Source: Bolinopsis microptera (Eukaryota > Ctenophora > Tentaculata > Lobata > Bolinopsidae). Taken from it: DNA of 64,000 bases. The stretch spans positions 6,544,169 to 6,608,168 of the forward strand of contig NC_087079.1 in NCBI RefSeq assembly GCF_026151205.1, written 5' to 3'. The position numbers and the translations under genes are program-made. The notes under the pieces are model-generated. The model did no database searches. It was not told the origin of the DNA and saw nothing but the letters and a program-made list of their open reading frames with translations. This document shows, piece by piece, positions 9,147 through 47,733 of the stretch (position 1 is the first letter of the stretch; each line of letters opens with the position of its first letter).

Positions 9147-12100
9147 TCAAGATTTTCCTTTGGCAACATCGCACTGTTTAATCTCCCTGTGCCCCTCGTT
9201 TATAAGAGTTAAATGAGCCTTGTAGAGTAACGACAGGCCTACTCCACGTCTCTTAGCTGCTGACCAGCTCTTGCTTACCCCGTAGAACTCTCCCCGCTTC
9301 TCGTTTGCCAGCTTCTTCAGTCCTGGGAGATGTAACTTTAATTAATCCTTCTACCCCCTATTCGCCCCTTTCTAGCCACAATCTAGCCTTGGAGGGCTAA
9401 CATTTGTGGAAACAGCTGCCTGGTTGCTCAGTAGTCATAATTTTTTAGTAAGTTATTTAATTTACTAGTTAAGTAACTATAGATGCAATTTCTCATCAGT
9501 ATATTAACTACTAATACTATTGCAGCTGCAGGCGAGCAGCTGCAATATTAGTTGCCCCTTGTTGCAGCCCCCTAATTTATCAAAAAGTAGGTCTCGTGGC
9601 GTGATACTGATACAAAAAATTAGGGGATATATGAAATAATTTATTTATAGACTATAGTACTATCTTAACTCTATCAGTATTGGTTACTACTATAAGGTAA
9701 CTATGGTTACTATGGACATGGTTACTATGGTTACTACCTATGCATCCTATCATAACACCCTCGCGTGTGAAGGCCTCCTCCGCTATAGTATTGTTGTACA
9801 CGTGAAGACTTACTACTCCTCTTCCACTCGTCCAAATAGATCGGATCTTCCGCAACTTCTCGCTGTCCTGTAGATTGAGCAAGAGTTAAATTCATTGAAT
9901 GCCCAAACTGTGATAAACGACCCGGGGCAGCACTATATACTCGAAAATTCTGTTTTAATATTAGCTGATAGTGGTTTAAATGTAACAAGAATTGCGCCCG
10001 TTGTTTCGTTTTGGCGGACGCTAGATTTCCATTTCACTATAACTATTAATATAAGCTCTAATCAGCTCACCTTATAATAATAATATTGAAACATCAGTAG
10101 ACTACGCGTGCCACATTCAAGTTGGGCTTATTACAAAATACTATACATTACTAGTATAGGGGGGGGGGGGGGGGGGGGTCCACGTTAAAAAAAGTTAAAA
10201 AAGTTAAACTAATTAATGTTAAATTTCAAAATTCAGGCTTAGAAAGTTTAACTTTTTTAACATGAATTCAAATTTGGGTTGAAATTGCAATGGAGTGAAT
10301 ATTCTAGACTAGTTTACTTTTAGGTCATGCGTTGGTATTTTTGTTCATTAGTCACTACATGTAGGAATATAGGAATGCCCATGACAAGAGTAAAACAGTC
10401 ATATAACATAGGTACAACCGATAAATAATTGATACATTTGATCATTACAATAATAAATTATAATTCATAGAAATATAAACAGCTGATTCATAAATAATTT
10501 TAAAAAAACAACAGATTCCATTCACAGTGTCAACACTGAAAATAGGGCTATGATAATCTATATCATTAAATCTAGTGATACTAATCGTAATGAATTAATA
10601 ACTGAATAAAATTCTAATGATGTTTCATAAAAGTTATCGCTTAAACAAAGAGTCACTGTGTCACGATATTATATTACAAAATTTAAAATAGTGTCTAATG
10701 ATATTTCATAAAAGTTATCGCTCAAACAATGAGTCAATTTGTCACGATATTATATTACAAAGTTAAAAAGAGTCACGTCTAATGATGTTTCAATGTAAAA
10801 GTTATCGCTCAAACAATTTGTCAATATATTATATTACAAAATTAAAAAACAGTGTCAATGAAGTAAAAATTTTACAGGTGTTACTGTAATAACGTAAATA
10901 AAAGAACTTGAGGTTCTAATTTGAAGTTACTTATATCATTTAACCTGAATATAAAAGTCTATCATTAAAATAATTTTCACTATAGTGCAGCAGAGTCCTT
11001 ATCGTCGTTCATATATTTTAGAACTTCACTTGTAATACGATTAACATCATACGGTTGAGGAATCTTCATTATATCACGACATACATCATTATTCAGTAAT
11101 GAAAATAGATGTTCCTCAATAATCTCTTCCTCGGACATTCCTGATGTCCCAAGACTAGGGAGGCTACCTCTTATGGCCAAACAACTGGCTAAAAAAAGCA
11201 CAAATCCTTCAGTACTGATCCTGAGATCGCTGAACTGTCACTTGAACGCAAGCAGCTGATGATTGCGAATATGCAGAACAAATTCCCGACCAACAGGAAG
11301 CATGTCAAGACCAACATCAACCAGCTGAGACGCCCGGAGATACTTTGGAGCCTCTAAGATACTCGCCAAAGGATATGTTAGACCAGCTCTAACCGTCCAC
11401 AACCCTGCTGGGAATATCGCAGGTACTAATGAGGAGAAAGCGAGGATTATTAAGGAGAGCGATCGTCATCATTTAAAATCGATTTATTTTAATTTACGTT
11501 CATGACCGCTTATACGCCCTGTTACAACATGCTTCTCAATTCCCACCAGCACAGAGGTCCCAAAATAGTTCACACACCGAGTTAGAGCGCTCCGTATCGA
11601 TTTCAAAGCCACGCAATGAGGAGGCATGGAGAGGTTATGTCTGGCCGGGGGCAATCACTTAACGTGTATAAACAGTGTAAACAGATTACTAAATCATCGC
11701 ATATCTCCAGTTGTGGTTGTTTGTTTTGTTCCGGGGTTTGACCTGAGTGTACTGTAGAGACGATTTTCTGTTCATTTCTCCAGTAACCAATAAGCGGTAA
11801 ACGGTAATAATTGGCATAAACCATCGTTATGTTTTCTTTCTATTTTTTGGCGGATAAATCAGAAACTAGGCATTTGCTTTTCAATTGTAGTGACTACTGT
11901 ATTAGTTTACGAGTTTTCTCACAGCAGGACTGTTTTCTTTCGTGCTTTTTCAATGTAATATCGGGTCAACTTCAAGGTTAACAGTATCTACCGTATTTTC
12001 TTTGTACATACAACTTGCCGTGTTAACATTAACAATATCTACCGTACTTTTGATGTGGTACCGTGTAAAAAGTACCTACAGCATGGCAAAACATCCATCG

Positions 12101-15100
12101 TTCAACCGAGCTACTGTGCCATGCCCGAGCATCGAAGTTTGAATATACCGGGTGGTAAAATTCGTGAGATCGACAGTCTTTTGAACGCGGTGTACCTTCT
12201 ATAAATAATATCGTATCAGAATACGCATTATTATTCGATAACCTGTCATCCAAAAAATATTCTTGCAGTACAGTGGTTCCTATGGAAATATAAGGTTGTT
12301 AGCAGCTACAAGTATAACTTCTACACGAATCCGGACTCCAAGATGCCTTCTTCATGTGTGGTAGGGGGTTGTACACACAGAAGTGGTCAGAACAGTAAGC
12401 GGCCTGGACGACAGTTTTTGATATTTCACTGCGTTCCCACAGACGACAGAATGAGAAAGAGATGGGACCTGAGGATAAATCGACAACCTGAACATGTTTA
12501 ACATGAGCTACCCGAGTCTGACAACTCTCTGTACGCTAACATAAATCAAGACAGGCTTCATCGTCCCGTTGAAGAGTGGTGTTCATGCGGGGAATGCAAA
12601 CTGATGGACACAGAGAAGGAGCACGTTTGCTGCAACGAATCGCATTTCATTACTGCGCATCGAGGAGAGCATCGGTGCATCAGCCAGGTTGGGATGTTTA
12701 AAGAACTTGTCGTCAGTGAGGATGGACTAGTTTACAGTAGGTACATGTATTCAATGAACATTACAGACCCTGATAAAAGAGATAGGTTTCTCAAGAAGAA
12801 GTTGAACCAAAAGGAACTACGCTTCATGGCATATAGAACCTTTATCAATATGCTATCATGTCGAGATTTCGATAGGAATGTGAGGTATATTTTGCCTGCA
12901 TGTGTTGTCAGCCAAATCAGGGCAAAGTTTCCGAATGAAAACGGAGAACCCTACACAGGCTACGTTTCGCTCAAGTCGAAAGATGGGCAATCGTTGCCCT
13001 AGACATTGTAATATTACATTGTATTATCAAATTAGTAATTACGTTGTCAATAACAGTACCAGAACAATAGGAAAATGTACTTTTCCTGAAAAAAAGTATT
13101 GACATTTCTTTTTCTTAAATTTCTGATATAATGTTCCGTATTGGAATGCTTGTTTACAGTAATGAAATGCAATTATTATTCACCGCTTCCAGCCGTAGTA
13201 TTGTGTTGTGAAGTATGTGTTGGCCCGACTCCAGTGAAATCGATGCCTCCTCATTTCGTAATACCGCTCTCGCGTGCGTGTTACTCCGGGTCTATTTACG
13301 TGCTACAGGGAGGGGTGGCGGAATTCTAAATTTAACCTACTTGTAGGATGTTGTATCGGCTACAAGCTAACTCTAAAAATTTGCAATTTTTTTTCGGGTG
13401 CCCAAATGACAACCATCGCTTTAAGGAGTACTTTGGAGCTGAGTTCAACAACGCTGATGAGCCTACCCTTCCTGCCTTCCTTGACCCCCCATCTAGCCTT
13501 AACAGTCCCATCACCGTTGCAGAGATAGAGAGAGCCATCAGTAAACTCAAGTCTGGTAAAGCAGTGGGTATTGATAAAGTTCCTGGCGAGGTCATGAAAG
13601 CCCTGAACAACCCCCTCCTTCATGAAGAGCTGGCTAATGTGTTCATTGTTCAACGAGTCTTTCGAGAAAAACATTCACATTGAAGCAATAGGAGCAGGCA
13701 TCCTCACACCACTGGCTAAGCCTGATAAAACTCGTGGCCCAGTTAAGTCGATACGACCATTGCAATTGACCCTGCTGAATGTTTCTAGAAAGATCCTGTC
13801 ACTGATAGTGCTAAACAGAATAGAGAGAGCTGTGGACAACTTCACCGGACCGTTCCAAGCTGCCTACAAAGCTGGCAGGAGCTGTGCCGACCTAGTTTGG
13901 GCACAGAGCATGCTCATATCTGTAGTAATGAAGAAGGAGTTTGAATGGAACAAAGTCAGTATCGACATGTCAGCTGCCTTCAATACCATCCGCAGAGGTA
14001 CAACAATCAGAAGCTGCAGGATGCTCCAGAGACAACCTGAGGCTTGTACAATACCTCATGGCTAACACCACTCTAGTAGTCAGAGTGTGTTCTACTGACT
14101 CAGAGATGTTCTCTTTCAACATAGGAGCCTCCCAAGGAGACAGCACAGCTGGTAAATTGTTTACCCTCAATCTAGCTGGAGCTGTAGTGCACATAAGAGC
14201 AGTCCTCCCCTCAAGACCCAACCCTCCGATAGCCGATAACCACATGCCTCTTGAGTCCGGCTATTCAGACGATTTAGAGGAGATTGGTGAAGATATGGAG
14301 GAGTTACAGGATATCTTTCAGATCTCCAAGAATATTCTCAGTGAATGGAGTCTCTTTGTCAATGACACAAAGACAAAGTTTACCAGAGTGTATTTAGAAG
14401 AAGTTGGTGCCTGTGACGAGTGCGAGTGGGATAATGAACTAAGAGGAAAAGAGGAGTGGAGAAACGAGACGCTTCTTGGTACTAAGCTTGGATCAGAGCA
14501 GGATGTTACTAATAGAATAAATAAAGCTAACTCTGCCTTCTGGTCATTTGACAAGCTGTGGTGCCAGGGATCAGAGAGGTGTCAGATAACTGAGAAGAGA
14601 AAGATCAAACTCTACGACTCACTAGAAGTATCAGTGCTCCTGTACAACTGCTGCTGCTGGGCCGTACCTCAGCATGTTCTAGAGTCTGTAGATGTTCTTC
14701 AGAGGAAGCACCTCAAGCGCATCCTAACATCCTACACATATATTGGCCTAGCTCAATATCTAACAAGGCCCTCTACGCTCGTACCCAGACCAGGCCCCTT
14801 TCCGAGAGAGTGGAAAAGGCACGGTGGACAATGCTAGGTCATGTTCTACGCAGTGACAACGACACACCTGCCTACCAGTCTCTGTTATTTGCTACACTAG
14901 GATGTCAAACACTAAAGGGACGAGTGGGTAGACACAGGACTAATTTGTATGATATTATTGTGAAAAAGGACCTATTTAAGAGACAAATTTATTTAAAAAA
15001 TGAAGATGATTTTACCAACTTAGTGAACTTAGCAAGAGATAGAGTAGGATGGAGGAGTTTATTTACTTTGAGACATATTGAACGAATGAGTCTTCGTAAG

Positions 15101-18100
15101 CGTAAATAGGCCAGCACTTTGCTGAGCCTCTTTAGGTGCTCTTTTGTTTATAGATGTTATTATATTATATAACTGGCTAAATGGCTCTTTAGATTATGAG
15201 AGCATCTATGTTTTGAAACAGAACTTCGATCTGGTTGTTTCACTTTCACACACCCCAATAGGTTCTTTACCTGCTTTAACACTTCAGGGACTTCATTTTC
15301 AATATCTTCCGCGCTATCAATTACATTTAGATATTTCTTTGAATCCTGATTATTTTTTATTTCATTCAACGATCTATGCACAAGTTCCTCATCGTCACAA
15401 CTTTTCAAATTGCTTGGACCTAGTGATCTAGTTAACTCTAGCATTACCGCAATGTGGGAAATAAAGGCAAAATAATGCTTCCCTGTCACATTTGCATGGA
15501 CATAATTAGTAGACAGCTTTCCTTGTATTTTTGGAATAGATTGAATAGTTTCCGATGACAAGATTGGTTTCACTCTAGCTATTGGGCATGGCTGATGCAC
15601 AGTATTCTGCACCACATCATCTGTACTCTTTGTTCCATTCTGACATTCCGGGGTAGGTAAAATACTCATCATCCGACGACGTCTTTTCTTAGATTTTAGT
15701 CTTAATACCCGCTCCATGGATCGCACAATTGATAACGTAGGACACCTGGATTTTTTTCCTCCGAAAATATTGTATATATTCTGTAGGCAAGCTTCCTCTA
15801 AAGAACACCCAAGTCTGAATAAAACCTGTTGAATTGCTTTGGCCTTGATAATCTGGCCAGGTACCATGTCGTTACACTTCCACAATTCAATTTCAAAATT
15901 CGTCCTGACCGTGCATCTATCTTTAATCGTTTCGGCATCGAGCGCCTTTCTTCCGGATTTCTCCTTACAAAGTTTGTTTTTCGGCGTGGAAGTGCCATCT
16001 TCTGTGGCGAATCTTGTAGAAAGTTTGTTTAAAACAGTCTCTTTCTTCGCAATCACAGGCTTATCACCTTTTCCATCGTGTACTGGCAGTCTAATTGTAC
16101 TCAGAGAACTTGTTGGAGGAGTATTACTAGAGTTCAATTTGTCCCGATTTCCCTGCTGATTCTCATTCTTGATTGCAGTTCCACCTTCAATGAGTCGTGT
16201 AGACAACTTGTTAAGTGCTGTTTCCTTCTTTGAATTTAACACTTTCTTGCTGCTGTTTATCTTATCAACATCAATTGGTCGTCCAATTGTGAATTTAGAA
16301 TTGTCTACTGTGGGAGTTCTCGTGGTTAAATTATCAGTGTTAGCCCGCAAATGCTCCTTCTTCTTCAGACCCGTCGATGAAGATTTATCCATAATCGTCA
16401 ATTTGCTTTGCACCGTCGGTTTCTTAATCTTTGGAATCCTAAAAGTAGGGACAGCTCTCCTCTTGAATGAGTTGCTTGTTATTATCGCAGTAGTGATAAC
16501 ATCAGCAGATGATTCGTCTTCAGAATCATATTGAGTTCTAGGTTTTGATGAATCAGCAGCCCTTTTTGAAGTGTTGACAACAACTGATACGTCCTCAGTA
16601 GATGGTTCGGGTACAGGGATTACAGCTGGAGGAAGCTCCGGAGTATCAATACCTGATGATGTGTCCTCAGTAGATGGTTCGGGTACAGGGATTACAGCTA
16701 CAGGAACCCTTCAAGCGAATGAGCGACTCTCCTGATGCCTTCGCTAAATTGCAACGTAAACATCTGTCGTATGTGAGACTTTCCATAACCCTTCCGCACT
16801 TACACCGCCAAGCCATATTCTTTTTTCGTATTATATGAATGATTATATTAGTAAATTATACAATTATGTGTTTATATAGATACAAGGTGTTTTTTTTTGT
16901 AGAGTTATCAAATCAGTTACAACTACAGAAAACAATTGCAAGAGCGAGGCACTACTAGTACTAAAGGTCAACACTCATAATTGAGTTTAATTTGGGTAAT
17001 TATGTTAAAATTTGAACCGATTAGTCAGCCAAAATCTGATTTTTAATTTATGTTAAAAAAGTTAAAAAAGTTAAAGTAATTAATGTTAAATTCCAAAATC
17101 TCGATCTTAGAATTTAACTTTTTTAACGTGGACCCCCTCCAGTATACATTAAAATACGCTCGTGCCGCGCATTCATTGACCACAGACTAGCTATACACCA
17201 CATCTCCGCAAGCAATCCCCGTGCGCGTGCGCGCGGCAAGTTGACATGGTAACGAACGGAAGCAAGTAAGGAACAGGACATATATTTGACCCACCTACCG
17301 CTATCTCCAAAATCCACGTTTTTCTGCAAAAACGTCCATTCGTAACCTTTCACTATTGCCTTTTTTCAAAAGGGTGAAAAGGAAAAAATACATAAATGAT
17401 AAAAACCAGGGGTATGATAACAGTCAGCTGGTATACGAATTATGCGTGATTCAACCCACCGCCATTCTTATCGGCACAGATGGTGATATGACCCATTTTA
17501 TTGTATTTTTTCCTTTTCACCCTTTTGAAAAAAGGCAATAGTGAAAGGTAACGAATGGACGTTTTTGCAGAAAAACGTGGATTTTGGAAATAGCGGTAGG
17601 TGGGTCAAATATATGTCGTGTTCCTTACTTGCTTCCGTTCGTTTCCATGTCAACTTGCCGCGCGCACGCGGATTGCTTGCGGAGATGTGGTGTATAGCTA
17701 GTATGTGGTCAATGAATGCGCGGCACTAGCGTATTTTAATGTATACTAGTAATGTATAGTATTTTGTAATAAGCCCAACTTGAATGTGGCACACGTAGTC
17801 TACTGATGTTTCAATATGATTATTATAAGGTGAGCTGATTAGAGCTTATATTAATAGTTATAGTGAAATGGAAATCTAGCGCCCGCCAAAACGAAACAAC
17901 GGGCGCAATTCTTGTTAATCTGTTTTTTGTTTGTTTGGGGACCAGCTTTTGGTACACTGGTTAATGTTTACTATAATATTGAAATATTACATTACAATTA
18001 GATAAATAAATAGAAAGATAGAACATACCACTATATCCAAAAATTGAAACACTGTACCGTAGCACACAACACAAAAAGTTAAACTACTGGCAAAGTGTCC

Positions 18101-21100
18101 TCAGAAAAATAAAAACCCTAAATATACCTAGCCTTGGTGAGACCTGCTTCGCGATTGCTATTCAGCGATGTGTGCTCCACAAGTCATCACATACCTGAGT
18201 TACAATCACGGTTGCAGTTTTTTAACTCACAATTAAAAGTTCCTCGTTATTAGCCGTAATCAACAAATACACGCAACAGCCATAAATAAGAGCCATATAC
18301 ACACATTTAAATCAAAGTAATTATGTAGATATCAAAAACACCGAATGTTACACCTTAACCTTATCTACACTGAAAATCTTGCCGTCTCTAATATAATGAT
18401 ACTTTGTTGGCTCATCAGTGATCATTTCCTTTACTTTGACAACAAGTTTCTGATGAGCTGCTCTCTCCTCCTTGCTTCTGTCAGGTGTAATGTACCATGT
18501 GTGGTACGCTGTACATTTAGATTTCTTCAGATTTCTTGCTCGAGCAAGAACCATTTTTACTGATTCCGCGCAAGCCAATGTCACTTTTATTGGTCTCGGT
18601 TTACCACTGCCTGAAGTTGTTTTAGTCCCGATAGAATTTGCTGCCACAACTTTAGGATCACACCCTGAGGATTCCCAAATCAATTCGATCACTTCTTCTG
18701 CCACTAAGTGTGGATCAGGGGAATAATTCTCCGGTACACCGTAGATAATGAAATTCTTACTACGGATGTCGTCTTCAACTACGGTTTTCACAGCTGTTTT
18801 TATACTGTTGATCGACGGAGTACTTGTAGTTGTCTCGCAGTTCTTCTTCACGATATCGCTCCACGCTGTCTTCATCTCGGTATGAACAGTTGTTTTAAAA
18901 GAGTCGAGTTGCTCCTGTTGCTGTTTAATCTGGTCTTTCTGATAGTTCAGCTGATCTGATTTAAGTTTGTCTATCGTACTGGCTGCACATTTACAAAGTT
19001 CAAGATTACTAGTCATTAGCTTAGAAAGATTTTCAACTGCAGTAGCCAAGGGATCTTTATTTACAGCCATTAATCTCGCATGATTCAGTTCTGTAACGCT
19101 TTGTGCTTTTGACATCTTCAAAATCTCATTCATCGCTGACGATAGCTCCTTTTCAAATCTGTTCAGATGTTCGACGGAAAAATCCATTTTACAAAAGCCA
19201 AGGCGTACAGCACGACGTGTCGGTGTAACAGCAAGTTGAGATAACACTACCGATAAGAGAGCAATTAAAATGTTGCAAAAGCTAGAATAAAAGATTGTAA
19301 TTCGTTCAACACGCTAGTGAATTACTAGACTGAGGTCCCCAGGTGACTGATCGAGTAATCGAATATAGATTTACAATCTCTACAATATTAGAACTAAGTA
19401 TTTAAATTAGTACTCCGCTACAACCCCCCCCCCTCCGCACCGACCTTGTTTTGGAGAGAAGCCTCAAAAAGGTGCGCATACGGTCGACTTTGCTTTCCTT
19501 TCCCGACGTAGAAAACTGATTTTATAAAGAGCTTGAAAACTTCCCGTGGGTTGAGAGTCTCTGCTTTTTTCGGTAAATCCTGAATTTTTTACGAAGTTAT
19601 TATAAATAAATTTATCATAAATTAATGAATTTGATAAAATTATATACAAATTAAATAATGTTTTAAACTAATTACAACACTACAAATCTATTACATTTAT
19701 TGAAGACGTTACAGAAGAAATTAATTTAATGTAGTTTGATGAGTCCTCACTCTCCTCACGTCCAACAATGGCGTTTCTCTTGTCGCTAATACAAATAGAA
19801 TTATTTGTACAAGTTAAATGGCTCAACAGTTCAATTGTCATAGCCATAACAATTCCATTATACTATAATAAGCTGTTTAATATTGTGTGCAGGTGGTTTA
19901 ACTGCGTGTATGCCACGTTGCAGTTGTAACACTAACAGCTCTCTTTAGATAAAATATAACTTAAACTTCCTGTGCTGATATATAGGCTATTGTTTGGTCT
20001 ATCTTATCGTACCCTTGTGCCACCACCGGCCCTTTGCAAGCTTAAATTCAAGATTAGTGAATATTTATTGAGCTGTGCTACTGCTCAGACTCACTCACTA
20101 AACGTTTGAAGTCGTTGGAGCAGCAATAATTATGTTTCGGACCGAAAAAATTCGGTATAGTTGAATAATTAACATATGAATGAGTAAACAGAACTGCAAC
20201 CCTTAACTTCCTAACTTACATACTAAAGCACCGCTTTCAAAGGATACTCCGACATTAAACCTAACTACCCTAAACCTAACTAGTAGCCTATAGCGCCGGT
20301 ACTTCTAAACAGCGTCACTTATTTTAAGTGTAACCATTGTACTGCATGGGTAACACTGCAGCATGGGAGTTTGGGCATGTAGCTTTTGTTGTAATTTGAA
20401 TAATAAGTGACTTGTAAGCTTAGTTTTCTTTTCAGATTGAGATTAGAAGTGTCAGTGAATTTGATGTGTGCCCATGGATTGTTCATATATCGCGTACGCT
20501 AGATTTTTGCCAGTTTCTGCTCCGTTATCACTTTTAAGCTTGATACCGTTGTTTTTGTTGTATAATAATTACACTGCTTAAGCATTTCCAAACCCCTCGT
20601 CCTCGCTCCTTACGCTAATTAAGTAATTAATTAAATGTAAAGATTGTTCTAAATTCAATCTTATTGAGGAATCTTGCGAAGGAAAACGAATATTCCAAGT
20701 ACAGGGATGAGAAAGCAGTATCACGATAGTCGATAGATATTTGACCAAAACCCATAATCATGGGTAGAGTGGACCGCTGCCAGTGTCTCTCTTTCCCAAA
20801 CAAAAGGAAATGATATTAATTTGATTGACCGTTCTCAAATGCAAAATGATACCGAGAATGAAATCGGTCGCTCGCTTTTCCCATTCATTCACGGCTTACA
20901 ATTAATCACATGCTGTAAAATTCCTTTGGGTTGCGTTCGGGTCGATATACCTAGTATTTCGGGATAAGGGTGGTACTGGTAGTTAGTGAATTAGCTGAAG
21001 TTTATTGAATCTTTATTGCTGAGTACAGCTGCCTTCGGGTAGTTCTTCTTAATTTATTACAATTGTAAATTAATGGGAAAAGCGAGCGACCGATTTCATT

Positions 21101-36100: not shown

Positions 36101-36761
36101 AAAAGAGATTTTGAAAGATTTTTGAAGGAGCTTTTCTGCCGTCCCCTTGACTGAAATTACGTGGTTTTTACTGAAATTTTGACCAGTGACCAATCAGTGT
36201 GGTCGGTGAGAGTGACACAAGTCGCCATCAAGGTACTGCAAGCAGTATGTTCGGAGAAAACTTTGATGCAATGAAAATTTTGAATATGTCCTACCGGTAG
36301 GACATATTCAAGTTTCAACTTTCCGCGACCCAAATTTCACTGTTTTGACTGAATTTTTATTGAATGACCATCTTACAGGGTCACTGAGGATGGCACAAGA
36401 CACGATTAATGTACTCAAAGTTCTATTCCCAAAGAAAGCTTTGATGAACGGAAAATAATTATCTCCTTTACCGAAATTTACATAGTATGATATTAGTTGA
36501 TCAATTTTATTTGGCATGAATATTAAGTGCAAATGGAGACAATTTGATAGATTTACACTTTTAAAAAAGGCTCAGAGGGATCATGCGTATTGACAAGGTA
36601 AGTTGATATGACTCACCAATATTACTGACGGTTGATAACAGAAAAGATAAGAATTCATCATCTGTCTGGGTAGAGAAGTTCAAGCTGTTCTTGTGGCGAA
36701 GGAATTGGGCAGAGACCCAATCACTTATCAAAACCATTACTGGATAATTGACATCAGCAAA
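9147..36761 (-). CDS. ankle1: LEM-3/ANKLE1-type LEM-domain GIY-YIG endonuclease, 12 exons (5' end not found)
   Basis: Assembled on the minus strand from exons 36617-36761, 35442-35531, 33316-33897, 32978-33087, 32040-32080, 31818-31884, 31290-31461, 30918-31022, 30571-30710, 19445-19579, 9738-9867 and 9147-9322. Every junction is GT-AG and phase-compatible, giving about 630 residues. The LEM domain spans two exons (LSDKELRTLLISKG...ETTRVVYEQYL). The nuclease begins with FNYLLIDPRIAD, then the catalytic exon SVFYVGKGKQSRPYAHLFEA, then RSIWTSGRGVVSLHVYNN...EAFTREG, then LANEKRGEFYG...KRRGVGLSLLYKA. That order matches LEM-3/ANKLE1, which cuts DNA bridges and branched DNA. The middle exon (33316-33897) is poorly conserved and has internal NEGE...VNE repeats. 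N-terminal ankyrin exons are expected upstream; 38300-38330 (minus) may hold one. Introns of 9.6 and 11 kb carry transposons and two other genes. Confidence 0.88.
10613..10855. repeat. Triplicated repeat of about 80-95 bp inside the poly-G element
   Basis: Three diverged tandem copies beginning TCTAATGATGTTTCA and containing AAAAGTTATCGCT(C/T)AAACAA and GATATTATATTACAAA. Near the left end of the 7-kb element; possibly subterminal repeats. Confidence 0.8.
10980..11201 (-). pseudogene. Separated C-terminus of the 7-kb element gene
   Basis: Minus-strand frame ending at 10980 with LEKYMNDDKD-like acidic helices (EEEIIEEHLFSLLNND, NRITSEVLKYMNDDKD). Its first codons overlap the LINE target duplication (11183-11193) in the same codon phase as the same bases at 15171-15181. 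The two pieces therefore read as one frame before insertion. The apparent Met start is within LINE sequence. Confidence 0.6.
12343..13002 (+). pseudogene. THAP-start / P2RX7 C-terminal-like zinc domain relic
   Basis: One frame broken by a single TAA at 12499-12501. The first 52 codons resemble the first half of a THAP zinc finger (MPSSCVVGGCTHRSG, then FLIFHCVPTDDRMRKRWDL); the later Cys/His pair is missing. After the stop, EEWCSCGECKLMDTEKEHVCC, ELRFMAYRTFINML and VRYILPACVVSQIRAKFP...YTGYV match the P2X7 receptor intracellular (ballast, P2RX7_C) zinc domain, without any P2X channel part. Located inside the LINE between RT pieces. Probably a transposon-carried or captured gene. Confidence 0.65.
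13396..15109 (+). pseudogene. Non-LTR reverse transcriptase, frameshifted
   Basis: The coding order follows a LINE RT: KEYFGAEFNNADEPTLP, SKLKSGKAVGIDKVPGEVM, ILTPLAKPDKTRGPVKSIRP, VSIDMSAAFNTIR, GASQGDSTAGKLF, active-site box GYSDD (usually (F/Y)ADD), thumb WRNETLLGTKLGSEQDV, and C-terminal TMLGHVLRSDNDTPA with ARDRVGWRSLF. At least three frame changes (near 13645, 14020 and 14800) disable it. An upstream RT piece at 11200-11459 (SFSTDPEIAELSLERK, GYVRPALTVHNPAGN) belongs to the same reading direction. No endonuclease domain is left. Confidence 0.85.
15160..16707 (-). pseudogene. Gene of the 7-kb poly-G element, main part (unknown family)
   Basis: Open on the minus strand from about 16707 to the stop at 15160, about 515 codons; the first ATG-like context is internal, so the start may be a splice acceptor near 16707. 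The product is lysine/serine-rich and carries two copies of a motif like KKET(A/V)LNKLSTR, a basic KSKKRRRRM stretch (possible nuclear signal), and near the start a duplicated VIPVPEPSTED. I recognise no transposase, integrase or BEN domain. The end (KSHLAS then YII stop) is artificial, because a LINE target duplication lies there; the original end is at 10980-11201. Likely encodes a protein of the element; function unknown. Confidence 0.6.
17147..17748. repeat. Palindromic core of the foldback element
   Basis: Two arms of about 245 bp (17147-17390, 17505-17748), over 90% identical by eye, around a loop of about 110 bp. Recognisable paired blocks include TGCAAAAACGTCCATTCG with its reverse complement, and GCAAGTTGACATGG with CCATGTCAACTTGC. 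Open frames here are only by-products of the symmetry. Confidence 0.88.
17918..18347. other. Non-coding DNA between foldback element and LINE ORF1
   Basis: AT-rich. No reverse-transcriptase sequence is visible here on either strand. It may be the 3' remainder of the LINE ORF1 transcript unit. Confidence 0.5.
18348..19187 (-). CDS. LINE ORF1-like RNA-binding protein, isolated
   Basis: 279 residues from MDFSVEHLNRFEKELS (an upstream Met gives 299). A long coiled-coil-prone region (YQKDQIKQQQEQLDSF) is followed by an RRM-like strand, RSKNFIIYGVPE, a middle region, and the C-terminal motif WYITPDRSKEERAAHQKL...VKEMITDEPTKY typical of L1/CR1-type ORF1 proteins that coat retrotransposon RNA. The frame is intact. 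No ORF2 follows on this strand; 430 bases downstream lies the foldback element. Confidence 0.7.
   Translation of the reverse strand: MDFSVEHLNRFEKELSSAMNEILKMSKAQSVTELNHARLMAVNKDPLATAVENLSKLMTSNLELCKCAASTIDKLKSDQLNYQKDQIKQQQEQLDSFKTTVHTEMKTAWSDIVKKNCETTTSTPSINSIKTAVKTVVEDDIRSKNFIIYGVPENYSPDPHLVAEEVIELIWESSGCDPKVVAANSIGTKTTSGSGKPRPIKVTLACAESVKMVLARARNLKKSKCTAYHTWYITPDRSKEERAAHQKLVVKVKEMITDEPTKYHYIRDGKIFSVDKVKV
19445..19579 (-). CDS. ankle1: Catalytic GIY-YIG exon of the LEM-3/ANKLE1-type gene
   Basis: 45 codons in phase 0, between an AG acceptor (AAAAAATTCAG) and the donor GTCGGT. Encodes DLPKKAETLNPREV then FIKSVFYVGKGKQSRPYAHL. In the family, the YVGKG core with the following Arg, Tyr and His builds the active site. 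The exon sits alone, about 9.6 kb from the next downstream and 11 kb from the next upstream exon, and its reading frame is masked by longer open frames. A run of ten C (19424-19433) lies about 11 bases beyond the donor. Confidence 0.9.
19580..20732. other. Intronic DNA of the LEM/GIY-YIG gene
   Basis: AT-rich and without long open frames. No repeats beyond short A/T tracts; I see no gene or element boundary here. Confidence 0.6.
20733..21222. mobile_element. Foldback MITE of about 490 bp
   Basis: Near-perfect inverted arms of about 150 bp: 20733-20884 beginning ATTTGACCAAAACCCATA, and 21073-21222 ending TATGGGTTTTGGTCAAAT, with a loop of about 190 bp. Arms include CGAGAATGAAATCGGTCGC and its complement. 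The direct flank duplication is not clear. Intron of the LEM/GIY-YIG gene. Confidence 0.88.
21223..22757. other. AT-rich upstream region of the class C GPCR gene
   Basis: No coding frame found. It holds a short triplicate of AAAGGGGTATAATAGT (about 22611-22655), about 100 bases before the GPCR start codon, and palindromic TGACGTCA near 22063. Any promoter for the GPCR would lie here. Confidence 0.5.
22758..27828 (+). CDS. Class C G-protein-coupled receptor (mGluR/CaSR-like architecture)
   Basis: Eight exons: 22758-22921, 23070-23216, 24956-25133, 25223-about 25252, 25323-25484, 25686-25773, 25874-26174, 26334-27828, about 860 residues. A signal-like start leads into a Venus-flytrap domain (DFIIAGVFNFGELEEIYNP, LQRALGFVEILKNFQPS...GYTLGYQIFTG, GIPAVSYMYADGDLMDQ). 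A nine-Cys linker follows (SCSETCGPGQF...FPCCWKCVMC...C). Seven transmembrane helices are encoded in the last exon, with TM7 LGPKFVVLV matching the family's PK motif, and a short tail. Positions that bind glutamate in mGluRs (the GSSS and ATS segments) read GYKK and ADG, so the ligand is probably not glutamate. The exon 4-5 boundary is uncertain. It lies antisense inside an intron of the LEM/GIY-YIG gene. Confidence 0.88.
23381..24905. repeat. 366-bp satellite array in GPCR intron 2
   Basis: Four full copies and a partial fifth, with period 365-374 measured at AATTAGTCAGTTAATT (23381, 23747, 24112, 24478, 24852). Each unit contains two diverged halves sharing GAGGTACTGGAAGT and GTCCCATTTTCA, so the array is a dimeric higher-order repeat. 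The last copy has an extra AT-rich insertion near 24652. Confidence 0.93.
28259..28660. repeat. Tandem duplication upstream of the PAN/CCP gene
   Basis: Two copies, period about 194 bp, each with TTTTGTCTCCGTAAAGTATT, AATATATTATTTGTGAATC and TATCCCTTTTCTGTGCGCAT. The second copy ends about 30 bases before the ATG at 28688, so the duplication may have doubled the proximal promoter/5' UTR. Confidence 0.88.
28688..29863 (+). CDS. Secreted or GPI-anchored PAN/Apple and CCP-like protein, intronless
   Basis: 391 residues in one exon. Signal peptide IVTVATILFIIVNG. A PAN/Apple-like module lies at about 18-97 (ECHEYCKYEAECETFSFN, ECFLYRENE, FMIGIKDC). The central region (about 98-280) has scattered Cys and no clear domain. 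A CCP/sushi-like module at about 283-342 (IPCKNVSVRDG, PGETITVSCNKGFGM, TTCSASRRPVVC) follows, then a Ser-rich spacer and a C-terminal hydrophobic tail, VKFLVLLTFLSYFLMSP, with no cytoplasmic part, as in GPI-anchor signals. Binding partner unknown. Plus strand, 860 bases after the GPCR gene, inside the same host intron. Confidence 0.8.
   Translation: MIVTVATILFIIVNGEEGNYSCYKHDVVIKSEPFLQFIVTPGNECHEYCKYEAECETFSFNLDWLSECFLYRENESNLIYETNNASHFMIGIKDCNQTDNVEWSDINMEGQYNPTQSFKMGQEDAVIFKRTDIKMCAEVNYTETKSSSSLGYQLFFSPVCERAPQWKMIPSYLDKVLGCDVVTVKAKFGDMSGDMCLSAVTLDVSVSRTNSPTATLQSCKNANHYLLLCPERGACAWSLYQHLPVFRPIIIPLHTSDNWFNRVPMSLLDLVTGNKLKTLQNIPCKNVSVRDGRILLEETVPFFLPGETITVSCNKGFGMQITQGVFRQEFTTTCSASRRPVVCSKLPEGVALPRAKNCSSTLQIDSSSSKSFMTVKFLVLLTFLSYFLMSP
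30230..30235 (+). terminator. Candidate poly(A) signal of the PAN/CCP gene
   Basis: AATAAA about 370 bases after the stop, and 340 bases before the neighbouring minus-strand exon (30571-30710). Confidence 0.5.
31290..31461 (-). CDS. ankle1: LEM-domain exon of the LEM-3/ANKLE1-type gene
   Basis: 57 codons plus one base. It ends in IVPNWIRDLSDKELRTLL, ISKGALVGAISETT, and the domain is completed by VVYEQYLVKLD in the next exon (30918-31022). LEM domains are helical modules that bind BAF (barrier-to-autointegration factor). The phase 1 join through a split Arg codon supports the model. Confidence 0.85.
32641..32910. repeat. 15-bp minisatellite
   Basis: About 18 copies of GGGTACTACAGCA(G) alternating with GGCACTGCAGCA and GGAACTGCAGCA variants. 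Lies in an intron of the LEM/GIY-YIG gene; its open frame is a by-product of the repeat. Confidence 0.93.
34014..35287. mobile_element. TTAA-flanked DNA transposon, non-autonomous
   Basis: Inverted ends AGGATGAGGGGACCTTAGAA (34018) and TTCTAAGGTCCCCTCATCCT (ending 35283) flanked by TTAA on both sides (34014-34017, 35284-35287); 1266 bp. TTAA targets are used by piggyBac and Kolobok-type transposons; an AGG start suits Kolobok better. No transposase frame inside. Sits in an intron of the LEM/GIY-YIG gene. Confidence 0.85.
35646..35730. repeat. 12-bp minisatellite
   Basis: Seven tandem copies of CTTAAAGTGAAA with minor changes, about 115 bases upstream (on the minus strand) of exon 35442-35531. 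Confidence 0.9.
35930..36455. repeat. Satellite-related repeats, two diverged copies
   Basis: Two copies, about 360-370 bp apart, of a segment containing CACTGTTTTGACTGAATTTT, TTACAGGGTCACTGAGGATGG and GTTCTATTCCCAAAGAAAGC. The layout (TTTTGACTGAATTT, then ACACGATTGAG, then a Cys-free non-coding spacer) parallels the 366-bp array at 23381-24905. Confidence 0.75.
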
Positions 36762-36839
36762 CTGTAACATAAAAGATAAGATAATACAGTCAATCATAAC
36801 TACATGGCAAGAATGCCATCAATTTAATGAATACAAGCT

Positions 36840-38595
36840 CAACCCGCAATATCAATCATTACTTTTGGGCTTCTAGAGTGAATGAATACAAATGCAAACG
36901 TGCAGCACCAATATAATATAAAATGTAATATCATGTATGTAATTGTACAAAAGATAAACACTTGATGGATGAAAAAAAAAGAGTTAAAAATAGCTGGACC
37001 ATGAAATGGTTTCCAAGAGTATGTCTGCACAGAATATGAATGAGGTTGCAGGTTCGAAAAAATCTTGCGAGGTACCTTTATTTCAATTTTGGTCACATTC
37101 CCTGCAGAGTTTTGGTCCTCTTCATTTACATGTAAGTGTTTCAAGCAATTGTGATCTGGGCATTACAGACAATTTTGCCAACCATTTGACAACATCCATT
37201 TGTTGTTTATAATAACATTAAATCTATTTGGCTTGTGAACAATTACAGCAATAAGTCTGTGGAGTAGTAGCAAGAAGGTATCGTATACATTTTAATATTT
37301 TCTCTTGGTTATTTATCAATAATTTAAATTCTGTATTTTTTGCACCAATGTAATTATGTTTTACCACCGTGTTTTGGTTCAGCCAAAATAAATTTTACAA
37401 TGATGTTTACATAATGTTTCTCACTCCAGCTGCAGTCTGGTAGTGTTGAGTCTCAGGAATATTTGTATAGCTCTCATTTTCGATGTTTTTTTGCCTCATA
37501 GGAGATATTGTGGTCTTTTGAAAATGTAACCGTAATACGTTGATGTAAAGTTTATTTGAATTTTGAAATAAAAGCTACTCGACATGTTCTAGTTGGTTGC
37601 TAGCCTATGCCCAAAATTGTAATATATTTAATGTTCTATATTAAACTACCGTCCGAATTGATGTTTAAAGATGATACTTTCTAGGATTTGTTTCTACCCT
37701 GTATCACAGTAAACAACAGTAATATATTATATCATATTATACTTAAGTCAAGTTTTTATCTATACTCACTGATAATTGCTTCCAGGAGCACATTCAATTA
37801 ACAATTTTTTTGAAACAGTCTGCAGATTGTTTCATTTAAATTTAAATTGTTTAATACTTTGTGTCATCCTTAATAGTGGGTAATGAATATAATTGGTTGG
37901 GTCGATTATTATATGATGGGCCCGGTTAACTGATCCCTATGAAGCGCGAGGGCTCTGGTTAGAGCAACAAATCAATTGAGCTGCTTATTTTTGTCATATA
38001 ATATTTGTGTCAGGGACACTGCGCACTGTCACTTTAGACGTTGTATATAATTATTGTTTAACTTAATCCTTGATCTTCTTAACAAATTTAGAACTGTACT
38101 AAGTACTTTTCAGATTAACAGTATGAAAGAGTTTCAAACAATATTATATATATGCATTCAATTAAATCAAGTGATGCTATTGGCAGAGCACAATACACAG
38201 GTAACTGTGTGATAAACCAAAAAGAACAACTGGGGTAGGTAGGTAGCCCTGGTGGGTGCGTTAACTTTACGGTCTGCTCTCTCCAAGATCAGCAGCTGCT
38301 TCTCCATTTTACCGTGAAGCCTAATTTCTAGTTTTTATAAATACAATGCAAGTGCATGTTTACTCATCTTAATCTACTTAACAACTCAATAGCCCAAGTC
38401 ACCATACGTACCTGTAGTATATTCCTTAGTAATAGAATAACTTAAAAGTTTTTCAAATTGTTGCTATAATTGATTTAAATAAAAATTTTTTCGTTTTCTT
38501 GAAAATTTGTTGTTTTCTTGAACTAATAAAACAGGTAATATAACGGAAATTGTCCTAATATTATATGAAATATGAACAATCAAATATATTTGATC
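36840..38595. other. Presumed upstream intron region of the LEM/GIY-YIG gene
   Basis: Mostly AT-rich. Two possible minus-strand exons: about 37763-37815 (frame with SKKLLIECAPGSN before a GTGAGT donor), and about 38270-38310 (MEKQLLILERADRKVNAPT, ankyrin-like). Neither joins in phase with exon 36617-36761, so the 5' end of the gene is unresolved. Confidence 0.3.
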
Positions 38596-39105
38596 TTGGC
38601 TAGTATATATGAAACATTTGACACGGAGTTGTGGAGTGAGCTATGTGCCTCGTCGGGCTAAAGTAGTGAATGTCCTTGCTGTACGGCAAGTTAAACAAGG
38701 AACTGAAACTACTAAGTTCCGTACAGGCTCAACGCTACACCCATGTCAATATGTTCATATGTAAGCCTCTTGATTATATGATCACCGGGTCTAGTAATTG
38801 TTTAAGAGACTTATCTGGCAGTTACGAAGCTCAAGAGACTGTGGGAAAACTGAAAGGATAGGAAGCAGTTCTGCCTGACTGCATCAGTAATGATGTAATG
38901 ACCGGTAATGAGCGCTTCCCAAACACACAAGGATATATCTTGTGTTCTTGGCTAGTATATATGAAACATTTGACACGGAGTTGTGGAGTGAGCTATGTGC
39001 CTCGCCGGGCTAAAGTAGTGAATGTCCTTGCTGTACGGCAAGTTAAACAAGGAACTGAAACTACTAAGTTCCGTACAGGCTCAACTCTACACCCATGTCA
39101 ATATT
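38596..39105. repeat. Direct duplication of about 158 bp, period 352 bp
   Basis: GGCTAGTATATATGAAAC to ACACCCATGTCAATAT occurs twice (about 38600-38755 and 38950-39105) with a handful of differences. A further fragment, CATGTCAATATGTTCATATG, recurs at 42455, beyond the element inserted at 39154. Confidence 0.88.
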
Positions 39106-39663
39106 TAGTTCAAATATTTAAAGTCAAAATAACCATTTCACAAGCTATTCAAAGGGGGGGGGGTGTCATGTCCGTCTATGTCCGCCTATGTCCTGTCCTT
39201 TTTGGATTCTATGAGACAACGGACGTGTTTTTTGGGACATTGGCGGACACGGACGGACATTGGCGGACTCGGACGGACATTGGCGGACTCGGACGGACAT
39301 TGGCGGACTCGGACGGACATTGGCGGACTTGGATGGACATTGGTGGACATTAGCGGACAAACATTTTGAGGACTGAAGAGTACTGAAATTACTGAAGAGT
39401 ACTGAGGAGGATGGCTGAGAAGGATGGCTGAGAAGGATGGCTGAGGAGGATGACTGAGGAGGATGACTGAGGAGGATGACTGAGAGGGAGGAGAAGGATC
39501 AGGAAGACCCAGGAGGAGGAGGAGGAGGAGGACCCAGAAGGAGGACCTAGGAGGAGGAGGAGGAGAACTGAGGAGGATGACTGAGGAGGAGGAGGACTGA
39601 CGAGAAGGATGAGGAGGATTGAGAAGGAGGAGGACTGAGGAGGATGGCTGAGGAGGATGGCTG

Positions 39664-40517
39664 GGGGGGGATGCAACGTCAATTAATGTCAATTAATGTC
39701 AATTAATGTCAATTAATGTCAATTAATGTCAATTAATGTCAATTAATGTCAATGTCAGTTTTGCAAAATTTTGGAATACTGACATTAATTGACACGATAT
39801 TTTTCGACCAGAGATTATGTAGTTCTACCATATTTTTAGCACTTTAGAACGTTTATATCATCAATTTTCCACTACTATCACATATGGAAATGTGAAATGT
39901 GAAAAAATTCAGATCATTAAACAATAAAACTAAAATAATACGGTTTTCCGAAATTTAATTTTCTTAAATGGGCGTGGCCATCCAAGGGCGTGGTTCTCAA
40001 CATCATCAGAACTTAAAACCCACATTAAACGAAATGCCTTCATGACATTTATATTTGAATAACGAATCTTAAACAGCTAACATTACTCCTTCATACTAAA
40101 AAAGCCGATTCTAGATATTTTACCTGTATAAGAAACCAATAAAATATGGGCGTGGCCGGTGGGGACCGAAGATGGAAGAGTTGGAAGCTGAAATTTTTTT
40201 TGGTGGTCTTTGAACCTAAGGATCAACAGATAAGAACATACTCATAATTATTCAAGGACATTTTGTTTTTTTGAACCGGTCTAACTTACGGTACATAGAC
40301 GTGAATATCTTGAATATTTATCGAATAATGATAATCTCAAATTTCAAGACAAATTAATGTCAATTAATGTCAATTAATGTCAATTAATGTCAATTGATGT
40401 CAATTAATGTCAATTGATGTCAATTAATGTCAATTAATGTCAATTAATGTCAATTAATGTCAATGTCAGTTTGGGGTTTTTATGGAATACTGACATTAAT
40501 TGACGTTGCATCCCCCC
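39664..40517. mobile_element. 0.85-kb poly-G-ended element nested in the 2.9-kb element
   Basis: Left end GGGGGGGATGCAACGTCAAT; right end, reversed, GGGGGGATGCAACGTCAAT. It is flanked by GATGGCTG on both sides, but the host is itself a GGATGGCTGAG repeat, so a 6-bp versus 8-bp duplication cannot be decided. Both ends hold arrays of the 10-bp unit GTCAATTAAT (39675-39755, about 40350-40465), followed by GTCAATGTCAGTTT and TGGAATACTGACATTAATTG. No coding frame. Confidence 0.78.
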
Positions 40518-40518
40518 G

Positions 40519-41740
40519 ATGGCTGAGGAGGATGACTGAGAGGGAGGAGGATGAGGAAGAGGAGGAAGAGGACTGAGGAGGAGGAGGAGAAGGACTGAGG
40601 AGGAAAAGGAGGACCCAGGAGGAGGAGGACCCAGGAGGAGGACCCAGGAAAAGGCCCCAGGAGGAGGATGAGGACTGGGGAGGAGGAGAACTGTTGAGGA
40701 CTGATGAAGAGGACTGAGGACGAGGAGGAAGAGTAGGAGGAGGACTGAGGAGGGGAGGAGGAAGAGGACTGGGGAGGATCAGGAAGACCCAGGAGGACCC
40801 AGGAGGAGGAGGAGGAGGAGGACCCAGGAGGAGGAGGAGGACTGAGGAAGACTGAGGAGGAGGACTGACGATGACTGAGAAGGAGGAGGAGGAGGAGGAC
40901 CCAGGAGGAGGAGGAGGATGGCTGGGTAGGATGGCTGAGGAGGATGACTGACGATGACTGAGGAGGAGGAGGACTCAGGAGGAGGACTCAGAAGAGAGGG
41001 AGGAGGAGGAGGACTCAGAAGGAAGAGGAGGAGGACTCAGGAGGAGGACTCAGGAGGAGGACTTAGGAGAAATGAGAAGGAGGACTGAGGAGAACTGAGG
41101 AGGAGGAGGAGGATGACTGAATAGGAGGAGGAGAAGGAGGGGGACTGGGAGAGGACTGGGGAGGAGGAGGACTGACGAGAAGGATGAGGAGGAGGACTGA
41201 CGAGAAGGATGAGGAGGAGGACCCAGGAGGAGGAGGACTGAGGACCGAGGAGGAAGAGGAGGAGGATGACCCAGGAGGAGGAGGACCCAGGAGGAGGAGG
41301 ACTGAGGAGGAGGACTGAGGAGGATGGCTGAGGAGGATGACTGAGAGGGAAGAGGAGGAGGAGGAGGAGGAGGACTGAGGAGGACTGAGAAGGAGGAGGA
41401 GGAGGAGGAGGACTGAATAGGAGGAGGAGGAGGGGGACTGGGGGAGTACTGAGGAGGAGGATGGAGGACTGAGGAGAAGGATGAGGAGGAGGACTGAGGA
41501 GGACTGAGGACTGAGGAGGAAGAGGAGGAGGATGAAGAGGAGGACCCAGGAGGAGGACCCAGGAGGAGGACTCAGGAGGAGGAGGACTGGGGAGGAGGAG
41601 GACTGTTGAGGACTGATGAGGAGGACTGAGGACGAGGAGGAGGAGTAGGAGGAGGACTGAGGAGGGGAGGAGGAAGAGGACTGAGGAAGATCAGGAAGAC
41701 CCAGCGGGAGGAGGAGGAAGAGTAGAAGGAGGAAGCATCT
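40519..41740. repeat. Purine-rich GAGGA/GACTGAGGAGG minisatellite
   Basis: 1.2 kb in which the plus strand is almost only G and A, with regular CT or CCC breaks (GACTGAGGAGG, GACCCAGGAGG). A second block lies at 39370-39660, on the other side of the nested element; the two were one array before that insertion. Long minus-strand frames here (Ser/Pro/Leu only) are by-products. Confidence 0.93.
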
Positions 41741-42243
41741 AAATGTTATTTCCATTTTTGTCCGTTTTTGTCCATTTTTGTCCGTTTTTGTCCGCTCTAT
41801 TTTTTGTCCGTTTTGAAAATATAGGGTACCGAACGGACAAAAAACATGATCCCCCTATAACAGCAAAAATTGAACATTTTATTTAGCAATTTAGGTGTCC
41901 ATTAATGTCCGCCTATGTCCGCCTATGTCCGTCTATGTCCGCCTATGTCCGCCTATGTCCGCCTATGTCCGTCTATGTCCGCCTATGTCCGCCTATGTCC
42001 GCCTATGTCCTGTCCTTTTTGGATTCTATGAGACAAGCGGACATAGACGGACGTGACACCCCCCCCTTCAAACAATATACACATAATATAGCAATGACCC
42101 TATATAAAAATTCTGTAAAAATGGTACAAATTTAAAAACTGAGGTAAAAATAAAACCCTTTGTAATAATATATATATATATAAAATCCACTAAATCACAT
42201 CACAACAAAAAGCAGTTTAGACCCCCATCCAACAAGCACTCCA

Positions 42244-46885: not shown

Positions 46886-47733
46886 TTAAGGCCACAGGGG
46901 GGGGGGTCCGAGGTCGATTTTGAGATTTTGAGATATGTTGTAGAGCTCGTTCTAAATTTTCAAATGCTTTTGTCCTTACCGAAAACAAAGTTTCCTATTT
47001 GAAGATATCGCGCGTTGAATTTTGAGGTTTACCTGTAATTCTATTGTAAATGAAAACTTTAAATGAAATCGTGTTCAAAATCTATCTTCTTTTTCAGTTT
47101 ATGACTTAGAACCTTGTAACTTGGCAACAATGTTCTTCAAGGTATTTTGAGTTTTTGTTATGTAACGATTTATGATATCTTTTTCCAAAGCTGAGATATG
47201 AGGTTAACCATGAGTGCGGGTTACAAAATTTAAAATGGTTAACCTCATAAAAAGAGTTAGGAGCAAAATTACAACAATCGTTACATAACAAACTTTTAAA
47301 TTTATGTCAGGAACATAAGTTCCAAATTTGAGGTGAAATGGATAAAAACTCTAGGAGAAGATAGATTTTGAAGTCAAAAATTCGAGGTTTTCAGGAGAGG
47401 CAAAAAACTGTTTTTTATGTTATGTGATTTTTGAGTATTTTGCCTTTATTTCTATATTTTTCAAAGTTTAACTGCTGAAATAACACAAAAACAATAAAAA
47501 CAAAGCTTATCGTAGTTTTCAGTTGTAATGGCATCAATATTTCTGCCCTCCATTATCGATTTATCAAAAAAATGAGGTTAAGGAAGAATTGGTTAACCTC
47601 ATTTATTAAAAAAAGTAAAATAGCTACAGAAAAATGAGTGGTGGCAAAGTATCCACCACAAAAATATATATTGATTCAAAGCATAATATTTTTTTGCATT
47701 TTTTGAAGCCTCGACCCCCCCCTGTGGCCTTAA
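46886..47733. mobile_element. TTAA-flanked MITE with G-run inside its ends
   Basis: TTAA at 46886-46889 and 47730-47733 bound an 840-bp element with inverted ends GGCCACAGGGGGGGGGGTC and GACCCCCCCCTGTGGCC, extending to GAGGTCGA / TCGA. The interior has repeated GAGGTTAA(C/G) words and no coding frame. TTAA targets point to piggyBac or Kolobok-type machinery. Confidence 0.85.

What the first reader, a model, noticed from the sequence alone, without database searches (positions are those of the whole stretch)
10159..42066. A group of poly-G-ended DNA elements with 6-bp target duplications and 10-bp subterminal repeats
Three elements (10159-17140, 39154-42066, 39664-40517) all start with a long G run (20, 10 and 7-8 G) and end with the matching C run. 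Inverted homology continues past the run (TCCACGTTAAAA, TGTCAYGTCCGTC, ATGCAACGTCAAT). Two have clean 6-bp duplications (AGTATA, TTCAAA); the third, in repetitive DNA, is compatible with 6 or 8 bp. In two of them the ends hold arrays of exactly 10-bp units, GTCCGCCTAT and GTCAATTAAT, which share GTC at the start and AT at the end; one helical turn per unit suggests repeated transposase binding sites. The G runs themselves could form quadruplexes. I cannot place this pattern in a named superfamily.
Basis: partly seen in the sequence, partly recalled or inferred. Interest (0 to 1): 0.85.

Follow-up and report, generated by a model that had tools for sequence, protein, structure and literature searches.

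The report
Poly-G-tipped jumping DNA elements
These are real, high-copy jumping DNA elements that seem unable to move by themselves; their tips are runs of G, they duplicate 6 to 8 bases of target on landing, and they most likely borrow an unidentified enzyme, perhaps of the hAT kind.

Summary
The three window elements belong to three families; a fourth, D, was found nested in family A copies. The genome (264.65 Mb) holds 70, 852, 474 and 150 ends of A, B, C and D, against 2, 8, 0 and 0 for reversed patterns.

Target duplications: B and D 6 bp, mostly with central TA; C 8 bp; A 6 or 7 bp, mostly bounded by T and A. Uninterrupted relatives give the empty sites of one C and one D insertion: the G run belongs to the element.

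New structural result: in all four families the same repeat module lies at both ends in DIRECT orientation; only the outermost 14-22 nt are inverted.

No transposase was found. The 15160-16707 frame is not recognisable as one; family A interiors carry LINE pieces and an apparent spliced gene copy. P and KDZ models found nothing, without positive control. hAT and MULE genes abound, but none sampled has these tips.

Best reading: non-autonomous DNA transposons moved in trans, most likely by a hAT-like transposase (unproven). G runs of 19 or more occur only on the assembly's + strand, so extreme lengths look artefactual.

The parts
10159..17140 (.). Family A element (about 5 kb form, here with a 1.96-kb nested insertion); TSD AGTATA on both sides (10153-10158, 17141-17146)
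10159..10178 (+). left G run of A (G20 here; 8 is the commonest length in the copies tabulated)
10188..10264 (+). left copy of the subterminal module of A
   Evidence: 69 of 75 identical to the right copy, direct orientation
17055..17130 (+). right copy of the subterminal module of A, same orientation
13421..15110 (+). non-LTR reverse transcriptase remnant inside A (passenger)
   Evidence: (PF00078 in the homologous ORF of L043)
15163..16710 (-). 516-codon frame inside A subtype A1; no recognised domain; not a transposase by any search here
11458..13420 (.). unrelated nested DNA transposon inside A: imperfect inverted ends AGCGATCGTCATCATTT / AGCGATGGTTGTCATTT, TSD TTAAGGAG (8 bp), THAP and P2RX7_C fragments
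39154..42066 (.). Family B element with GA-rich minisatellite interior; TSD TTCAAA (39148-39153, 42067-42072)
39168..39224 (+). left copy of B module
   Evidence: 56 of 57 identical, direct orientation
41985..42042 (+). right copy of B module, same orientation
39664..40517 (.). Family C element nested in B; TSD GATGGCTG (8 bp)
39675..39793 (+). left copy of C module (GTCAATTAAT units, then hairpin)
   Evidence: 109 of 119 identical, direct orientation
40386..40504 (+). right copy of C module, same orientation

Best explanation
[quoted passage not shown] A transposase made elsewhere binds the phased 9-10-bp units and the quasi-palindrome (GTC...GAC) of the subterminal module. Because the module points the same way at both ends, the two ends are not equivalent: at one end the unit array touches the tip, at the other a short inverted arm and loop come first. 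The cut lies between the target and a tip of about 8 (C: 6-7) G/C pairs, and staggered joining duplicates 6 (B, D), 6-7 (A) or 8 (C) bp. Most likely the enzyme is of the hAT superfamily: 6-, 7- and 8-bp duplications are all known there, central TA is the Buster-type preference, and quasi-palindromic repeats at one end are what Hermes uses. Family A grew by taking in LINE pieces and an apparent retrocopy of a host SAM-domain gene. Shown here: copies at many sites with duplications, duplication lengths, target motif, the module, no transposase domain in the frames scanned. Inferred: binding, stagger, common descent, hAT identity.
For: Ends far above control. Duplications: B 15 copies (13 give 6, one 5 plus G, one 6 with a mismatch), D 7 (4 give 6, three 5 plus a C or G), C 12 (7 give 8, four 7 plus G, one 8 with a mismatch), A 20 (11 give 6, 8 give 7, 1 ambiguous). 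Central TA in 18 of 22 B+D targets, p 7e-11 (two ambiguous ones, L160 and L172, were read the TA way; without them 16 of 20). A targets end in A in 18 of 19 and start with T in 15 of 19. Empty sites. Direct modules, scores 80-188 against shuffle maxima 25-41. 150 hAT dimerisation-domain hits in the genome. Literature passages: hAT5/6/7 (PMC12730594), Buster nnnTAnnn (PMC3517528), Hermes left-end quasi-palindrome and asymmetry (PMC10368747).
Against: No autonomous copy seen. Of 20 sampled hAT genes, 600 bp downstream of each showed none of these tips; one hAT family has a CAGTGGCG-like right tip instead (boundary seen in 3 copies). No hAT hit lies inside or within 6 kb of a listed A-D pair (148 of 150 hits against 33 A, 43 B, 42 C and 39 D pairs). 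The tips do not begin as I recall hAT tips to begin (CAG/TAG-like). Mixed 6/7-bp duplication within family A is unusual. C targets show no central TA and only a weak nTnnnnAn pattern (4 of 12, counted by eye from the columns).
Confidence: 0.5

Rival explanations
1. The mobilising enzyme is a Mutator-like (MULE) transposase.
For: 88 MULE hits in the genome; MULEs are known for gene capture and long duplications (recalled); FLYWCH genes, linked to MULEs (recalled), are expanded in ctenophores (PMC10027918, passages).
Against: Flanks of 5 sampled MULE genes (2 x 1.4 kb each) show no such tip. MULE duplications are usually 8-10 bp (recalled), against 6 in B and D. No MULE hit lies inside a listed A-D pair; two lie 1.9 and 4.8 kb outside a B pair (87 of 88 hits, lists of B, C and D incomplete).
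Confidence: 0.13
2. They belong to a superfamily not yet described, whose autonomous member is rare, diverged or lost.
For: Poly-G tip plus direct-oriented module plus family-specific 6, 6/7 and 8-bp duplications matched no description seen in the searches made (listings and some passages); no partner among the hAT and MULE genes sampled.
Against: Target motif and duplication set are already known within hAT; only a small part of the transposase genes was sampled; Repbase was not searchable.
Confidence: 0.25
3. P-element-like (THAP) transposase, as in Galileo, whose long TIRs hold tandem THAP binding sites.
For: Tandem repeats as binding sites in Galileo (PMC3688188, passages); 8 bp in C.
Against: P elements of Anopheles duplicate 8 bp (PMC1562414, passages), not 6.
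Confidence: 0.06
4. IS3EU/GingerRoot (6-bp TSD) or Dada (6-7-bp TSD).
For: TSD lengths of B, D and A.
Against: IS3EU ends TA..TA (PMC10045372, passages); Dada-U6 and Dada-U1 have no terminal inverted repeats and Dada inserts in small RNA genes (PMC3706591, passages); neither explains 8 bp in C.
Confidence: 0.03
5. The G runs are an assembly artefact or part of the target, not of the element.
For: Runs of 19 or more are 15 G and 0 C on the + strand, a bias no biology explains; another TIR element (46883-47736) and MITE-like loci here carry G runs too.
Against: The two empty sites lack the run; runs of at least 5 stand at both ends of every copy tabulated, although the search patterns themselves asked for 5-6 G (with mismatches allowed). 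Only the excess length is doubtful.
Confidence: 0.03

Closest known systems
hAT superfamily, Buster-type and hAT5/hAT6/hAT7 families
   Same: TSD lengths 5-8 bp known; central TA target (nnnTAnnn for Buster, nnTAnn here in B and D); short TIR; subterminal repeats; non-equivalent ends
   Different: tips are G runs; no hAT gene found with these ends; direct-oriented end modules; A mixes 6 and 7 bp
Hermes (hAT) left end
   Same: two subterminal repeats forming a quasi-palindrome at one end, asymmetric use of ends (PMC10368747)
   Different: 8-bp nTnnnnAn target; dissimilar ends rather than the same module at both ends
Galileo / Foldback-like P elements
   Same: tandem repeats in the ends, some shown to be transposase (THAP) sites
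   Different: very long inverted repeats; P-type transposase not detected here
Gene-capturing (Pack-type) non-autonomous DNA transposons (recalled)
   Same: family A carries gene and LINE fragments between conserved ends
   Different: the SAM fragment is intronless, so it was probably taken as a retrocopy, not genomic DNA
Dada
   Same: 6-7-bp TSD
   Different: Dada-U6/U1 have no TIR; RNA-gene targets

Membership tests
DNA transposon (class II, TIR) | inverted tips plus target duplication of family-typical length in many copies | tested here: met
   empty sites
hAT | hAT transposase with dimerisation domain encoded between the same ends | tested here: inconclusive
   150 hits in genome; 0 of 148 inside a listed pair, B/C/D lists incomplete; 20 sampled downstream flanks lack the tips
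hAT | TSD of 8 bp, or 5-7 in named subgroups | tested here: met
   6, 6/7, 8; subgroups per PMC12730594
hAT (Buster) | central TA in target | tested here: met
   B and D 18 of 22; not met in C, and A has T..A at the borders instead
hAT | typical tip sequence (CAG/TAG-like, recalled) | tested here: not met
   tips are G runs
MULE | MULE transposase between the same ends | tested here: inconclusive
P element | P-type transposase (PF21787) in genome | tested here: inconclusive
   0 matches, but controls rang nowhere; one search likewise
Zisupton/KDZ | KDZ transposase (PF18758) in genome | tested here: inconclusive
   0 matches, no positive control
IS3EU/GingerRoot | TA..TA termini | tested here: not met
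   G..C termini; definition from PMC10045372
Dada | no TIR; small RNA gene targets | tested here: not met
   14-22-nt TIR; AT-rich or varied targets; definition

The most novel reading that the evidence does not exclude
A superfamily of DNA transposons not yet described, with poly-G tips and one direct-oriented recognition module at both ends, in which closely similar end architectures make 6-, 6/7- and 8-bp staggers; in this genome it has about 770 copies (ends divided by two) in at least four families and has packaged retrocopied host exons with LINEs.
Probability: 0.22. Interest if true: 0.72.

Novelty: new variant of a known kind. Interest (0 to 1): 0.5.

Why it matters
If one transposase lineage makes 6-, 7- and 8-bp staggers on ends of the same plan, duplication length is a poor key for classing transposons, and these families are a ready comparison set for what sets the stagger. 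The direct-oriented module gives a simple sequence model for non-equivalent ends. Family A, with intronless host exons and LINE pieces between transposon ends, is a route for retrocopies to become mobile. The strand bias of long G runs warns against reading biology into homopolymer length in this assembly.

Tried and rejected
(1) The frame 15160-16707 as transposase: no recognised domain. Against L043, summed over 10 other near-full copies, 94 non-synonymous to 32 synonymous changes (2.9:1; neutral expectation 3.39:1); open without frameshift or stop in 5 of 11 near-full copies (L043, L044, window, L050, L057); partial copies L045, L053, L058 were not counted. (2) The RT in A as mover: the subtypes carry different RTs; in A1 all 7 other near-full RT copies carry indels and 2 also stops; 80 non-synonymous to 35 synonymous (2.3:1 against 3.47:1 neutral), so somewhat below neutral. 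(3) Other frames in A: 198 frames of 90 aa or more from the 20 A copies and 6 sampled middles fall into 50 groups after minisatellite-like ones were dropped; members of 29 groups were scanned with Pfam and gave RT, endonuclease, RNase H, SAM and weak hits, no transposase; 21 groups were not scanned. (4) An autonomous copy among A/B/C/D pairs: 18 middle pieces of 0.7-1 kb (8) gave known A interiors, GA-rich minisatellite (by eye), C ends with other repeats, and in L105 a frame 33% identical to the LINE-like frame of L048; L106 is a different minisatellite-like frame. (5) A looser end pattern gave mostly minisatellites and singletons; its reversed control was of the same order (71 against 110). 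(6) hAT end check: 20 genes and one family aligned. (7) MULE: 5 genes. (8) P and KDZ. (9) L128 C runs: they belong to a different MITE-like repeat. (10) A structure prediction of the 516-aa frame was started and had not finished; not used. (11) Papers looked at but not used: PMC2872659 (passages), PMC8869645 (passages), PMC13231562 (passages), PMC12221973 (passages; section 9 in full).
Full report
SETTING. The window lies in a 264,652,675-base, 232-contig genome. The printed contig lengths put 258,070,895 bases (97.5%) in 13 large contigs, which fits a ctenophore with n = 13; the published Bolinopsis microptera assembly has 13 chromosome-scale scaffolds with 97.23% of bases (PMC10232365, passages). 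The percentages are close but not equal, so the species is a likely guess, not a result.

OBSERVATION. The three elements are as described. Whole-genome pattern searches gave, for the A tip (up to 1 mismatch), 70 ends with 2 control hits, forming 33 facing pairs 2,930-12,136 bases long plus 4 single ends; for B (up to 2 mismatches) 852 ends, 8 control; for C (up to 2) 474 ends, 0 control. A fourth family, D (tip TGACATGTCTCCAATGTC), sits inside A copies L046 and L101 and has 150 ends, 0 control. Together that is 1,546 ends, about 770 copies if paired.

TARGET DUPLICATIONS. A: 20 copies with both ends (L052 dropped, no left end): 11 give 6 bp, 8 give 7 bp, 1 (L053, in a minisatellite) is ambiguous. 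Allowing a flanking C or G to belong to either side, 5 are fixed at exactly 6 and 5 at exactly 7, so both lengths are real. B: 11 copies (10 give 6, one 6 with a mismatch) and 4 (three give 6, one 5 plus G). C: 12 copies, all consistent with 8 (7 exact, 4 needing one G, 1 with a mismatch). D: 7 copies consistent with 6 (four give 6, three need one C or G; one of the four is the copy nested in L046). In B and D the central dinucleotide is TA in 18 of 22, CA in 2 and TG in 2; two targets, L160 and L172, were ambiguous and read the TA way. In A the last base is A in 18 of 19 and the first is T in 15 of 19.

EMPTY SITES. A C element in A copy L058 interrupts a stretch that reads on uninterrupted in L043; the duplicated bases are GCTACACT. 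The D element in L046 interrupts a stretch intact in L041, L042, L043, L047 and L051; the duplicated bases are TATATA. Neither empty site holds a G run, so the run belongs to the element.

ARCHITECTURE. Inside the run all four families share one plan. After a 5-7-nt tip comes a series of GTC- or GTT-starting units (10 bp in B and C, 9 in D, about 9-10 and weak in A), then a loop, then inverted units. Local alignment of left and right ends shows this module lies in the SAME orientation at both ends: A 69 of 75 identical (window copy), B 56 of 57, C 109 of 119, D 61 of 67; direct scores 80-188 against shuffle maxima of 25-41. Seven end pairs were aligned: three A, one B, two C, one D. Inverted matches score below the direct ones in A and C; in B and D the inverted score is as high or higher (105 against 103, 186 against 80) because arrays of opposite sense lie further in. 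The terminal inverted repeat itself is about 14-22 nt, and the two ends are not equivalent. The modules of the four families are alike in plan, not in sequence, so common descent is an inference.

G RUNS. The commonest length is 8 in A and B and 6-7 in C. In all loci taken in + orientation, runs of 19 or more are 15 G and 0 C; 12 of the 15 belong to this group, and elements lie both ways (for B, L065 and L067). Such a bias must come from sequencing or polishing, so extreme lengths, including the window's G20, should not be interpreted. A TTAA-flanked element at 46883-47736 also carries a G run, just inside its inverted repeat, so G runs alone do not define this group.

INTERIORS. Family A comes in subtypes that share only the outer 200-300 bp or a little more. 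A1 holds an RT frame (PF00078) and the 516-aa frame. Others hold different LINEs (RT, endonuclease, RNase H) and a 159-aa frame with a SAM domain. That frame is continuous in the best element copies but is matched in three pieces about 150-290 bp apart at C3:13647538-13648377, which suggests that the element holds a spliced retrocopy of a host gene. Between A1 copies both long frames are often broken; the 516-aa frame changes close to the neutral ratio, the RT somewhat below it. B and D interiors sampled are mostly GA-rich minisatellite.

READ AND NOT READ. Of 37 A loci, 20 were fetched in full and the window makes 21; 3 more were sampled by 1 kb (L099-L101); 11 others contain the 516-aa frame but were not read in full (only pieces of some, such as L002, L003 and L008, are held); 2 single ends were not read. 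For B, C and D the ends of 14, 10 and 6 copies beyond those in the window and in L058/L046, plus a few middles, were read. An autonomous copy could have been missed.

WHO MOVES THEM. hAT genes are abundant (150 scored hits) and MULE genes present (88). P-type and KDZ models found nothing, but neither rang in any control genome, so absence is not shown. Downstream flanks of 20 hAT genes and both flanks of 5 MULE genes show none of the tips. None of 148 hAT and 87 MULE hits lies inside the 33 A, 43 B, 42 C and 39 D pairs that the lists showed (the B, C and D lists are cut at 100 places). One multi-copy hAT family has a CAGTGGCG-like right tip, its boundary seen in three copies. The case for hAT rests on target behaviour: duplications of 5, 6, 7 and 8 bp are all reported in hAT (PMC12730594, passages), Buster targets have central TA (PMC3517528, passages), and Hermes recognises its left end through a quasi-palindrome of subterminal repeats while its right end binds no BED domain (PMC10368747, abstract and passages). 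The case against is the tip sequence and the lack of a partner.

NOVELTY. Literature searches (listings, plus passages of the papers cited) showed me no description of poly-G-tipped elements of this plan. Repbase and most subscription journals could not be searched, so this is not proof. I file it as a new variant of a known kind, with a fair chance of more.

Noticed in passing
window 46883-47736: A separate element with TTAAGGCCACA then G10/C8 in its inverted ends, TTAA outermost: a TTAA-type element with a G run just inside the tip.
   Followed up: partly
window 11458-13420: Nested DNA transposon with 17-bp imperfect TIR, 8-bp TSD TTAAGGAG, THAP fragment and P2RX7_C domain (PF20478, 7e-18).
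   Followed up: partly
window 52739-54175: 479-codon frame with an intact THAP domain (PF05485, 6.8e-17), probably a host gene.
   Followed up: no
L128, L137, L138, L146: MITE-like repeat GGGGTCGTTCACATATTACGTAATCA (L128) with internal C runs of up to 23; L146 shows a similar pattern and L137/L138 long runs only.
   Followed up: partly
window and L039-L175, + orientation: G homopolymers of 19 or more only on the assembly + strand (15 G, 0 C): likely assembly or polishing artefact.
   Followed up: yes
C3:13647538-13648377 (genome) and L051:3919-4395: SAM-domain host locus matched in three pieces while family A copies carry the frame joined: apparent retrocopy inside a DNA transposon.
   Followed up: partly
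window 19424-19433: Lone C10 run with no facing G run nearby.
   Followed up: no
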